Source: Pachyseris speciosa (Eukaryota; Cnidaria; Anthozoa; Scleractinia; Pachyseridae). From it: DNA of 64,000 nucleotides. The notes beneath the pieces are model-generated. The model ran no database searches. It worked only from the letters and a program-made list of their open reading frames with translations, and was not told the DNA's origin. Positions 14,533-22,593 of the stretch are shown in pieces; position 1 is the first letter of the stretch; each line of letters opens with the position of its first letter. The DNA lies in the NCBI GenBank assembly GCA_016490735.1, contig JAEMWC010000032.1, positions 1,348,501 through 1,412,500 on the forward strand, read 5' to 3'. The translations under genes and the position numbers were made by a program.

Positions 14533-15387
14533 ATGTTTACTAAAAAAGTTCTTCGTGTTTTAGGAGCCGACATGCGAATGGTCGTCGGCGCCATCTGTTT
14601 ACTATCGTTGTTACAAAGCGTGACTACCGGAAGCCGCTGTGTCAAGGAAGGGAAAACGAGAACAGCAAAGGACAAATGCAGTTCAGGACAGCTCCGGAAG
14701 GTCAATAAAGTATTAGCGAGAGCAGGCGGGGTAGCCGAAGGCTCCTGGATTTGCCTCAGGCACAGAAACGCGATACTCGCCGAGGACAAACGCTGCTCCT
14801 GCCCATCTTCGTGGGGACACAGTAAAGAACTGTCACGAACTCCCATCCCCGAGAGATTGTACTCGGTATTTGACGAGGTGGATAGGAGCAGCGTTGATAA
14901 GTACAAACCTGGAACGAACTGGTGCAACAAGTGTAGAAGCCTGGCAGATAAAAAATTCGCTTCACACCCCAAGTTCACTCCAAGGAAACGGAAGAGAATG
15001 GCATCAGAAAATAAGGTAAACAATTTAACTAAGTGTTCACTGGACTTTCACTGCACTTTCCTCTCTTTACAATTAATAACCAATCAACAGATGAATAAAT
15101 ATACAAAAATTAAATTTATTTGCTAGGAAAATGTAATTGACCGACCGGCTCCAGAGGAAGACAAAGACACTCGTCAAGTGTTACGATTACAAAAAGGTAA
15201 AGCATAGTGGAAACTTCCATGAATACTGTCTGAACTTGGACATTCAGCAACTGGACACTTTCTTTTATTTCCCTTTATCTGCAAACTTATTATGCCCACT
15301 TTTTCCTTTTCCTTACTTTAGATAATTATATATTACACACGGTAAAAGGAATATTCTTAATATGGTGAATATGTTTATAATTAACAC

Positions 15388-15391
15388 ATAT

Positions 15392-15466
<75 letters not shown>
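15388..15466. repeat. (TA)n microsatellite and T run in intron 2
   Basis: About 29 TA units followed by about 22 T, forming an extreme polypyrimidine tract shortly before the exon 3 acceptor. Confidence 0.95.
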
Positions 15467-15473
<7 letters not shown>

Positions 15474-18059: not shown

Positions 18060-18370
18060 TGCCCCATGCATTAAAACATGCATTACTTTGGGTGATTGTG
18101 CATTCGGAAAGGCTGCACCTAAATAATTATTGTGGAATGCTTTGCCAGTTGAGATAAGGAATGTGAAAAATGCAGACACTTTTAAGAGACTGCTTAACAA
18201 ACAGTATTTAAGATTAGCTTTTATCTGATTAGATCATGGTATTGTAATTCTTTTTCTTTTAATTTTTTACCTCTTAATTTTTAGAATTGTAGAATATGTT
18301 CGTGTAAAGGGCATGAGATCAACCCATCATGCTAGTATGTGCTATACGAATTGATATTATTTTATTATTA
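18060..18370 (+). pseudogene. 3' fragment of a CR1/Jockey-type LINE in intron 6
   Basis: A short frame reads WNALPVEIRNVKNADTFKRLL (split over the CGMLCQL frame), the familiar last block of LINE ORF2 proteins. It is followed by an AT-rich 3' UTR ending near TTATTATTATGC. No other LINE part is present. Confidence 0.6.
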
Positions 18371-18628
18371 TGCTACAAATCCTAATCATGTACATGTAGT
18401 TAAATTGCCCAAAAAGGCCTGTGGCTATAGACATCTGTTACGTTTTGTCTTGAATTGAGGAATTCATTGTAGACTTCTAAAATTATACAGGCAAAGTTGC
18501 TGAGGTACTGCTGAATATATTTCAGAAAGTTGCTGAAAATATTGGAAAGTCTAAGAAGGTAGGTTTAATGCACCTGTAAGTCAAAATACTCTGACTTCTA
18601 GTTTGCATTTAATAGGTATAAACAGTGC

Positions 18629-20937
18629 AATTGAAGGGCTCGGGGCAAGAACGTCCTCCCGGTTTTTGGTCGATTTTCGATGTGCTCAATACAAACTGAG
18701 ATTTGGCATGTGGACTTCATTCCAGTTAAAAAACATTGCTCTGTATTTGTTTTGGCTGATTTCCTCTTCGTTTTCGAGAAATAACGTATGCAAAAACCCA
18801 AGTCAGCTCATTCCCTTGCGTATTAATATTCATGCGCGAATTGAATTACCTTTAGGGCACGTGAAATGATTGACGCTTGGAAAGTATTGTTTGATAGTGT
18901 GACGTAGACTATACATTTGGCGGTTAAAACATTGATTTAAGTTTCATTGATAGGAAACTTACGTGGCTGTGAGGTGTCGATTGCTAGCTAACTTTAATGG
19001 AAACTCGCCAGCCTGGTGGTCGAACGGACGTCATTTAAGTCTGTCGATCGGCAATTCAGACACTTCTGAAAGAAGCCAGTGGTGTTTCTCTGTGCGTGCC
19101 AAACGCTGGAACAAATCGGCGTTTCGCAGTACAGAGTACTGAGCCAGGCGGGACAGTCTGAAAGCAACTCTCGTCTTAAAAGCGGCCCGCAGTTGAGAGT
19201 GTTGGCCCATTTGCCAAAGGTTGCCGTGCTAGAAATTCGGAAATAAGAGTTGTTTTTTGACTGCGGCGAAAAATATGGGATGTTTGAAGACGTGTTGTGC
19301 GCGCTCGAAAGGATGTTTTTATGCCCACAATCCAATGCGACCACAGAGGGCGCTGTCTCCTTGAAAAGTTCTCGCGAGGACTGGAAATGAATATTCGCTC
19401 GGCTGCGGTGGGTAAATTTTCACTTCGGAGCGCGAACATTACGGAGAATTCATCTAAGAGTGGGAAATTCGGAAGACGAGCAGTCAGTCCGTTTTCGATG
19501 AGCTGAGTATCTTGCAAACAGTGCATTTTCCATCGGTTTTCATTTCTAAACGGCACTTTCAGAATAGTAAGTTGCGTGGTTTTGGCGGTTGAGAAACGTC
19601 GGCAATGGATTCATTTTCGTCGTCAAATGGAAAATATGGAACGAAAATGGTATTAAAATCAAACTAAATGACGACAGGTCAAGACTTTGGACAACATGCC
19701 TAACTAGTTCTGAAGATATTCTTTAGCTTCAAACTGCCGAAAATTTGCATACCCGGTATATATGAAATTCGATCGCACACAATGGGCTGTCACACGACTC
19801 GCGTGAAAATAATTTTAACTGTTTATCTGGGGTGAAAATGCTTTTTGCCGTTAATCTCGCGTGAAAATACTTTTTGATGATGTTTACAAGACTCCATATA
19901 AGCGAACTAACCGAGGTACTCGATGCAAAAGTGATTTATATGTTAAAATACGCCAGCATGTTTATCAGAGGACGCTGTCACCTTGTCACGTCGTTTGTGC
20001 TTTGAAAATTTGCTGCGTGCGGCAAAGAAAGTTTTCCTTGCACTGGTTTTCCAAGATACTCAGCTCATCGAAAACGGACTGACTGCTCGTCTTGCCGATT
20101 TCCCACTCTTAGATGAATTCTCCGTAATGTTCCCGCTCCGAAGTGAAAATTTACCCACCGCAGCCGAGCGAATATTCATTTCCAGTCCTCGCGAGAACTT
20201 TTCAAGGAGACAGCGCCCTCTGTGGTCGCATTGGATTGTGGGCATAAAAACATCCTTTCGAGCGCGCGTAACACGTCTTCAAACATCCCATATTTTCGCC
20301 TAAGTCAAAAAACAACTCTTATTTCCGAATTTCTAGCACGGCAACCTTTGGCAAATGGGCCAAGACTCTCAACTGCGGGCCGCTCTTAAGACGAGAGTTG
20401 CTTTCAGACTGTCCCGCCTGGCTCAGTACTCTGTACTGCGAAACACCGATTTGTTCCAGTGTTTGGCACGCACAGAGAAACACCACTGGCTTCTTTCAGA
20501 AGTGTCTGACTTGCCGATCGACAGACTTAAATGACGTCCGTTCGACCACCAGGCTGGCGAGTTTCCATTAAAGTTAGCTAGCAATCGACACCTCACAGCC
20601 ACGTAAGTTTCCTATCAATGAAACTTAAATCGATGTTTTAACCGCCAAATGTATAGTCTACGTCACACTATCAAACAATACTTTCCAAGCGTCAATCATT
20701 TCACGTGCCCTAAAGGTAATTCAATTCGCGCATGAATATTAATACGCAAGGGAATGAGCTGACTTGGGTTTTTTGCATACGTTATTTCTCGAAAACGAAG
20801 AGGAAATCAACCAAAACAAATACAGAGCAATGTTTTTAAACTGGAATGAAGTCCACATGCCAAATCTCAGTTTGTTTTGAGCACATCGAAAATCGACCAA
20901 AAACCGGGAGGACGTTCTTGCCCCGAGCCCTTCAATT
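18629..20937. mobile_element. 2.3-kb foldback element in intron 7
   Basis: Two inverted arms of about 887 bases (18629-19515 and 20051-20937) run AATTGAAGGGCTCGGGGCAA inward and are nearly identical, with a spacer of about 535 bases. Apparent frames occur as mirror pairs in the two arms and have no protein character. I found no target duplication or transposase. It lies between exons 7 and 8 of the transposase-like gene. Confidence 0.9.
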
Positions 20938-22593
20938 TTGAGTCGCGAGTTGTTTAATCGACTTCTACTCATCAATACATTAAATGTACATTGAAGTCAG
21001 AATTGTCAAGCAGAAAGATCCTAACAATGAATAAATACTGATTGAAGAAGCAGCTTGGGTAACATCACAATTAAATGGAATGAATAAGAGAATTAACATT
21101 CCATTTGGCTCTGAAAACAAGAACAAGAAAAACATATTGTAATAGTAGTAGATAATGTTTTCAAATTACTCCCACTGTCTAATTTAATTAAAGCTCTGAT
21201 GGTTACTGGCTTTGTCATATAATTTCCCAGCTGATTTCAGTAATGGAGATTACAGTATGACCAGTCACTGTCTCAACTTCAACTTTGACTCTATCTTCTG
21301 CTCTTCAAAATAAGCATACAATTGTTATATACATATAATTTACTGCAAACATTTTTGTTACACAGGTTACAGAAAACCTAACCAGTCAGGGTCAAAGACA
21401 AAGACAACCAAAGTTCCATTTATATACACTTGATCAAACTGTTGATACAAAGTCTCTTCCTCTGTGTTACAAACATCTGGACAGTAACTATCAATATCCA
21501 AATCCAGACATTTTATGTGACTACAGCAACTGTGCATTAGCTCAAGACAATGATCAAGTACTAAGACTAGCTTGCTGTCACACTTTTCACCAGGAGTGCT
21601 TCCTCCTAAATAACTGTCCAATTTGTACAAAGCCTCTGTTGAAGAAAATTACCACCCTTGCTGATGCCTTCAATGAAAGCTTACTTACTCCAACAAAATC
21701 TTCCTCAATAAACAACACTACAGATTCTTCCAATTTAGCCTCTGAAGAACAACCTGACCAAGACATAGCACCAAACAATTCCAAACAACCGACATTCTAC
21801 GACTCAGATGAATGGGAAAAGTTTGTGAACAATGTTCTGGCAAATGTCAATGTCCCACAGCCTTCAACCTCAAGATCATCTGAACAACAGCAGCAAAGTC
21901 AACAACAACAACATCCACCATGCCACCAAACACAAAAAGCAAATCAAACAATTAATATAACATCAGTAAGCATTGCGGGTGGAAAATTTCTATTCTTTCC
22001 ACACTCCGTGTCCCAGGCTACACTTAATGGAAGAACAGGGTCAAATGCCTGCACCTTTATTGCATTGTACCTAGCAAAGGCATATCACATGAACTTAGGG
22101 CATGTACCATCCCCAGTGCAAATTTCCCCTGTGTGGGCTGCTGTTATGATGTCCTGTATCATGAGGGGGAATGCAATGCATGACACTTTGACGGGCAATC
22201 GTGCCATTAATTTTTCTGTTGATGCTGCTGCAGAGCACTTAAGACAAAGCTTGGGTCAAATTCAAACCGAAGATTCTTTTGACTTAACATTCACAAATGA
22301 AAATCAAGATATTCCCCAGTCCTCAGCAGCATTTTACATTCAACGGTTAACTCGGGAACCTGAACTATCAGCTATGGTCATTATTTTAAAACGAGATGAC
22401 AATCTGTTTTGTAGCACACGGTGCAAATATTGTTATGTTAGACAGTCACTTGCACGGAAACCACGGAGCACTTATTGCCAGTACAAAAGTAGAAAATACA
22501 GAGAATTTTCTAGTGGCAGTAAAACAACTGATAAGCCCTAACTACAACATGTGCACGCTGACATTTGTTCAATTTGCCACCACTGTAATTTGA

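What the first reader, a model, noticed from the sequence alone, without database searches (positions are those of the whole stretch)
14533..22593. Transposase-like gene fused to a RING finger and a Cys/His peptidase-like domain
Eight exons with consistent phases join a zinc-binding N-terminus, a probable DDE core, a RING-H2-like finger and a C-terminal region with GSNACTFIALYLAK and DSHLHGNHGALIA. A Cys early and a D-x-H late in a 230-residue domain resemble a papain-like or deubiquitinase-like peptidase. A DNA transposon with both ubiquitin-ligase-like and peptidase-like parts in one protein would be unusual.
Basis: partly seen in the sequence, partly recalled or inferred. Interest (0 to 1): 0.88.

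Follow-up and report, generated by a model that had tools for sequence, protein, structure and literature searches.

The report
Transposase fused to RING and deubiquitinase
A decayed jumping gene in what is probably a coral or sea-anemone relative carries, in one protein, a DNA-cutting transposase, a RING finger of the kind that attaches ubiquitin, and an enzyme fold of the kind that removes it, a three-part arrangement that I did not find described.

The parts
10898..28340 (+). DNA transposon that holds the gene: ends 5'-CACAGG...CCTGTG-3', 17.4 kb as found, about 10.8 kb without the two nested insertions
   Evidence: ends, duplicated AAT, open frame of the interrupted gene across the join; the 9-mers AATCACAGG and CCTGTGAAT each occur once on the + strand of the 64 kb
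10895..10897 (.). target site duplication AAT, left
28341..28343 (.). target site duplication AAT, right
10898..10944 (+). left terminal inverted repeat; the pair 10890-10944 / 28295-28348 is 71% identical over 56 columns, E 0.12 on its own
28295..28340 (-). right terminal inverted repeat
11024..11350 (.). left subterminal tandem array, 33-bp unit x 9.9
27579..28142 (.). right subterminal tandem array, 42-bp unit x 13.5
14533..15015 (+). exon 1: Cys/His-rich N-terminus
   Evidence: related N-termini in P0055 and P0025 of Porites lobata, compared by eye
15127..15196 (+). exon 2
15481..15721 (+). exon 3; holds an in-frame TGA at 15636-15638
15802..15994 (+). exon 4
16253..16602 (+). exon 5: first strand of the RNase H-like core with D-D (16280-16285, DDFHNIH)
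16956..17874 (+). exon 6: rest of the DDE core; second D at 17134-17136 (GDWP), E at 17703-17705 (VEIWHS); frameshift near 17307-17310
18491..18558 (+). exon 7
   Evidence: border corrected by one base
21366..22593 (+). exon 8: pre-RING segment, RING-H2, linker, VTD-type peptidase domain; frameshift near 22385-22430
21516..21626 (+). RING-H2 finger (C-x4-C ... C-x-H-x2-H-x2-C ... C-x2-C)
21951..22593 (+). VTD-like peptidase domain; Gln 22014-22016, Cys 22050-22052, Asp 22441-22443, His 22447-22449
12254..12625 (-). possible exon of a second, divergent gene of the element (unverified)
   Evidence: open frame only; no Pfam family above cut-off
13770..13985 (-). possible first exon of that second gene, with an ATG (unverified)
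18629..20937 (.). nested foldback element in intron 7 (arms 97-98% complementary)
22708..26996 (+). nested LTR retroelement with identical 122-nt LTRs and 5-bp duplication ATGTT
10193..32297 (.). outer element (IS3EU-type: TAC...GTA ends, 6-bp duplication GACTAG) into which the transposon jumped

Best explanation
The gene is the transposase of a cut-and-paste DNA transposon of anthozoan cnidarians, present here as a dead copy. Supported by computation: its protein joins a Cys/His-rich N-terminus, an RNase H-fold DDE core with a helical insertion, a RING-H2 finger and a C-terminal papain-like domain of the VTD (viral tegument-like deubiquitinase) family. The element ends in CACAGG/CCTGTG, duplicates 3 bp on insertion and has tandem arrays near both ends. 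Inferred mechanism: the N-terminus binds the subterminal arrays, the DDE core excises and inserts the element, the RING recruits an E2 to put ubiquitin on the transposase itself or on proteins at the transpososome, and the VTD trims such chains, so that the transposase carries a ubiquitin writer and eraser in cis and escapes or times its own destruction. The RING looks like the older part; the VTD was gained in the cnidarian line or lost elsewhere.
Against: This copy cannot make the protein. No enzyme activity was tested. Sequence-only links of the VTD to known members are weak (E 0.041; Pfam Herpes_teg_N E 0.052 in 2 of 10; no hit for a single sequence). RING scores of the window and of P0001 stay below Pfam's cut-offs; a RING pattern was found in 15 of 26 rows, the rest beginning after it, deviating (P0002 has Arg for one ligand) or being VTD-only proteins; the first knuckle is C-x4-C instead of the usual C-x2-C and Thr follows the last Cys in the window, so E2 binding is uncertain (recalled criteria). 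No Pfam transposase family matches the core above cut-off. Foldseek has no match for the core below E 0.001 and its first row by E-value is an ABC transporter with probability 0.12. The two end repeats alone reach only E 0.12. No second copy of this very element was seen, because the genome search did not complete. P0025's gene model ends before the RING.
Confidence: 0.82

Rival explanations
1. The RING is a structural zinc-binding dimerisation or DNA-contact module and not an E3; only the VTD acts on ubiquitin, protecting the transposase from host-made K48 chains.
For: Non-canonical first knuckle C-x4-C in the window, P0001, P0036 and P0040 (sequences; canonical spacing recalled); helitron VTDs are proposed to protect transposition proteins from the proteasome (PMC9741609, passage seen).
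Against: All eight ligands are kept in the two Gigaspora-type rows aligned and the profile's best matches are RING-H2 E3s.
Confidence: 0.3
2. The inner gene belongs to the large 10193-32297 element as one of its own genes (cargo), not to a separate transposon.
For: The gene lies wholly inside that element, which has clear ends and a 6-bp duplication.
Against: The outer element has its own rva_4 integrase (E 9.8e-28); the inner block has its own ends and a 3-bp duplication and interrupts an open frame that is continuous across the join; the inner core is itself DDE-like.
Confidence: 0.06
3. A domesticated host gene rather than a mobile element.
For: Multi-exon gene; Acropora proteins P0020 and P0024 have the VTD domain without a RING pattern or visible core, as expected of domestication elsewhere.
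Against: Decayed here, inserted in another transposon with duplication of the target; 90%-identity clusters of relatives hold up to 293 sequences and 266, though these counts may include several assemblies of one species; patchy distribution in anthozoans and Gigaspora-type sequences.
Confidence: 0.05
4. The peptidase domain is an active protease but not a deubiquitinase (YopT/AvrPphB-like), for example cutting the transposase polyprotein.
Against: [quoted passage not shown] 8ADD, 8ADC and 2J7Q score higher, 8ADB about the same.
Confidence: 0.15

Closest known systems
VTD family (Viral Tegument-like Deubiquitinases), PMC9741609; structures 8ADD, 8ADC, 8ADB, and herpesvirus M48 2J7Q
   Same: Predicted fold, Gln and Cys upstream, Asp-x-His downstream, Cys-to-Asp spacing; the paper also says that several Cnidaria (corals, sea anemones) have VTD domains fused to several transposon-associated domains (passage)
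   Different: The transposon VTDs characterised there are from Helitrons (HUH/helicase), not from a DDE transposase with a RING, in the passages I saw; activity of the present family untested
Ginger1 transposons with C-terminal Ulp1 or OTU domains (PMC2836005, passages)
   Same: DDE transposase with a C-terminal ubiquitin/SUMO-type cysteine peptidase, also in a cnidarian (Hydra)
   Different: Ginger1 core is integrase-like and its peptidases are Ulp1 or OTU; here a P-element/RAG-like core, a RING and a VTD
EnSpm/CACTA and the CMCT group (PMC12730594, passages)
   Same: 5'-CAC..GTG-3' termini and 3-bp target duplications; subterminal repeats (recalled as typical)
   Different: The C(2)C and H(3-4)H motifs between second D and E, shared by that group, occur together in 0 of 46 rows here
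P element transposase (6PE2, 6P5A), Hermes hAT, Transib/RAG1
   Same: RNase H-like core with a helical insertion between second D and E
   Different: About 6-12% identity over the aligned parts; different accessory domains. RAG1 also has a RING, N-terminal (recalled)
RBR ubiquitin ligase-VTD fusions of Agaricomycetes (PMC9741609, passage)
   Same: A ubiquitin ligase and a VTD in one protein
   Different: RBR not RING-H2; not described there as a transposase

Membership tests
VTD deubiquitinases | VTD fold | tested here: met
VTD deubiquitinases | Catalytic Cys with Asp-x-His downstream | tested here: met
   Cys 25 of 25 covered rows, D-x-H-x-H in 23 of 26 rows (three rows cut short); lines both motifs up with 8ADB
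VTD deubiquitinases | Ubiquitin cleavage | not testable with these tools
   needs purified protein
DDE transposases | RNase H-like fold with D on the first strand, D at the end of a later strand, E in a following helix | tested here: met
   strand 246-257 holds D253/D254, D419 follows strand 414-418, helix 599-610 holds E602 of P0025
RING-H2 E3 ligases | Eight zinc ligands C/C/C/H/H/C/C/C | tested here: met
   invariant in 5 of 5 rows, though first spacing is C-x4-C; pattern in 15 of 26 rows
RING-H2 E3 ligases | E2 binding and ligase activity | not testable with these tools
   E2-contact residues look atypical (recalled criteria)
EnSpm/CACTA (CMCT) | CAC..GTG termini, 3-bp target duplication | tested here: met
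   criterion from PMC12730594
EnSpm/CACTA (CMCT) | C(2)C and H(3-4)H motifs between second D and E | tested here: not met
   both in 0 of 46 rows; CxxC in 3, Hx3-4H in 13
DUF6589 (PF20231) | Pfam profile match | tested here: inconclusive
   1 of 53 rows, E 0.0082; the ten rows scanned singly gave none
IS3EU (outer element) | TA..TA termini, 6-bp target duplication | tested here: met
   criteria from PMC10045372
IS3EU (outer element) | Transposase of the IS3EU lineage | tested here: inconclusive
   rva_4 integrase core E 9.8e-28; no IS3EU sequence was compared

The most novel reading that the evidence does not exclude
An undescribed superfamily of DDE DNA transposons, shared by anthozoans and Gigaspora-type sequences, with CACTA-like ends but a P-element/RAG-like core lacking the CMC zinc motif, whose transposase carries a RING and, in the hexacoral branch, adds a herpesvirus-tegument-like deubiquitinase, so that one mobile protein both writes and erases ubiquitin to control its own lifetime or host repair at the cut site.
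Probability: 0.4. Interest if true: 0.8.

Novelty: new variant of a known kind. Interest (0 to 1): 0.64.

Why it matters
Several unrelated transposons carry ubiquitin or SUMO peptidases, yet why transposition should need them is open (raised in PMC2836005 and PMC9741609). A transposase with both a RING and a deubiquitinase in cis, with relatives that keep the RING but appear to lack the VTD, gives a natural comparison: the same core with and without the eraser. It also adds a DDE transposon to the vehicles that may have spread the VTD fold to herpesviruses and animal germ-line genes, and points to a transposase lineage that no Pfam family recognises above its cut-off in the rows scanned.

Tried and rejected
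TIR candidates rejected: 14295-14320 with 27274-27299 (E 0.9; CCGCGG..GCATGCGC, promoter-like by recall). An automatic scan for TIR plus duplication gave 7 hits, best score 16, against 17-19 in 3 of 5 shuffled sets; it demanded 4 bp or more of duplication and so could not find the accepted 3-bp ends, which rest on the interrupted gene, the matching termini, the unique 9-mers and the arrays. An earlier scan without duplications found nothing of 18 bases or more upstream of the LTR element. The outer 10193-32297 ends were first taken for this gene's own (note), then assigned to the IS3EU-type element after its integrase was found. The shuffle control used a pattern read off the two ends themselves.

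Literature: searches (term 'DUF6589' holds in 0 papers). I did not find a RING-VTD-DDE transposase described in them; supplements were not readable, so PMC9741609's 'transposon-associated domains' in cnidarians may include it. PMC9741609 was seen as abstract and passages; PMC2836005, PMC12730594 and PMC10045372 as passages; other papers as search listings only.
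Full report
OBSERVATION. The copy is a pseudogene: TGA at 15636-15638 in exon 3, a frameshift near 17307-17310 in exon 6 and one near 22385-22430 in exon 8. Intron 7 holds a 2.3-kb foldback element (18629-20937), and a 4.3-kb LTR retroelement with identical 122-nt LTRs and the 5-bp duplication ATGTT lies just downstream (22708-26996).

RELATIVES. Exon 8 finds 24 proteins, the two best 69-70% identical over 99% of it. An alignment of exons 5-6 with P0025 finds 83, P0025 included. A search with the whole protein returned only P0025 of Porites lobata, called 'Transposase' by UniRef, whose model stops before the RING. 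P0036 (Montipora capricornis) and P0040 carry the exon-6 core, RING and VTD in one protein; both start at exon 6. P0055 supplies the N-terminus and part of the core. I infer that the window is from an anthozoan; nothing names it.

RING. A profile of the family's exon 8 (20 of the 24 hits) best matches the Arkadia RING-H2 (E 8.2e-5). The window and P0001 alone stay below Pfam's cut-offs. A RING pattern is found in 15 of 26 rows; of the others several begin after it, P0002 has Arg for one ligand, and four (P0019, P0020, P0022, P0024) look like VTD-only proteins. All eight ligands are invariant in the 5 rows, including P0095 and P0099, which group with Gigaspora rosea sequences. These two open frames end about 70-75 residues after the RING without a VTD; P0095's contig is only 1,907 bases long, and a further exon is not excluded. 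Hence the RING is probably older than the VTD. The tree (25 of 83 hits and the window) joins the window with P0032 (97/92) and, less firmly, with Nematostella rows (81/91), and sets the Gigaspora type beside P0092 and P0093; it is midpoint-rooted and warns of long branches. E3 activity is not shown.

THE ELEMENT. Two nested transposons surround the gene. The outer one, 10193-32297, has TACGGTGGCCC inverted ends (0 of 100 shuffles hold two matches, the pattern being read off the ends), a 6-bp duplication GACTAG, an rva_4 integrase on the minus strand (E 9.8e-28) and a gene with a zinc-ribbon-like start (E 0.00037) and a HECT-like end (E 0.089), both below Pfam's cut-offs. This fits IS3EU (TA..TA ends, usually 6-bp duplications; PMC10045372, passages). 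The inner one, 10898-28340, interrupts that gene: its ends are CACAGG and CCTGTG, AAT is duplicated, and the frame is open across the join. By my estimate an open frame alone has about a one-in-three chance, and the end repeats alone reach only E 0.12; the duplication, the matching termini, their uniqueness in 64 kb and the tandem arrays near both ends add to it. Minus-strand open frames at 12254-12625 and 13770-13985 may be a second gene; unverified.

FILING. Ends and duplication fit EnSpm/CACTA (PMC12730594, passages), but the C(2)C and H(3-4)H motifs of that group occur together in 0 of 46 rows. I do not file it there. It works like a P-element/RAG-type cut-and-paste transposase with CACTA-like ends.

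FUNCTION. Computed: domain content, conserved catalytic residues, transposon context. Inferred: DNA binding by the N-terminus, cut-and-paste by the core, ubiquitin writing by the RING and erasing by the VTD. Helitron VTDs have been proposed to protect transposition proteins from degradation (PMC9741609); a cis RING-VTD pair would let the transposase tune that. Ginger1 (PMC2836005, passages) shows that a peptidase on a transposase is not itself new, and an RBR-VTD fusion exists in fungi. The new point is the three-part protein, and possibly the transposase lineage. Other copies in the host genome could not be examined, because the genome search did not complete (18 attempts).

Noticed in passing
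10193-32297: IS3EU-type transposon with its own integrase, whose gene with a zinc-ribbon-like start and a HECT-like end (10445-10897, 28344-28718, 29501-30352; weak Pfam scores) is interrupted by the inner element: perhaps a second ubiquitin-linked transposon gene at the same place.
   Followed up: partly
22708-26996: LTR retroelement (Gypsy-like by eye) with very short (122 nt), identical LTRs and 5-bp duplication: a recent insertion.
   Followed up: partly
18629-20937: Foldback element with arms of about 0.9 kb at 97-98% complementarity in intron 7; no target duplication of 6 bases or more found around these ends.
   Followed up: partly
P0019, P0020, P0022, P0024 (proteins): Proteins (P0020 and P0024 named Acropora) with a VTD domain keeping Cys and Asp-x-His but no RING pattern, two of them behind long repetitive N-termini: possible domesticated VTDs.
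   Followed up: no
P0095, P0099, P0101, P0104, P0107: Gigaspora rosea and similar sequences carry the same transposase core, in P0095 and P0099 with RING but no VTD in the open frame; suggests transfer between a fungus and cnidarians or a very old element.
   Followed up: partly
14533-14640: The protein starts with a hydrophobic, signal-peptide-like stretch (by eye), as does P0055 of Porites lobata; odd for a nuclear transposase.
   Followed up: no
12254-13985, minus strand: Two open frames that may be a small divergent second gene of the inner transposon.
   Followed up: partly
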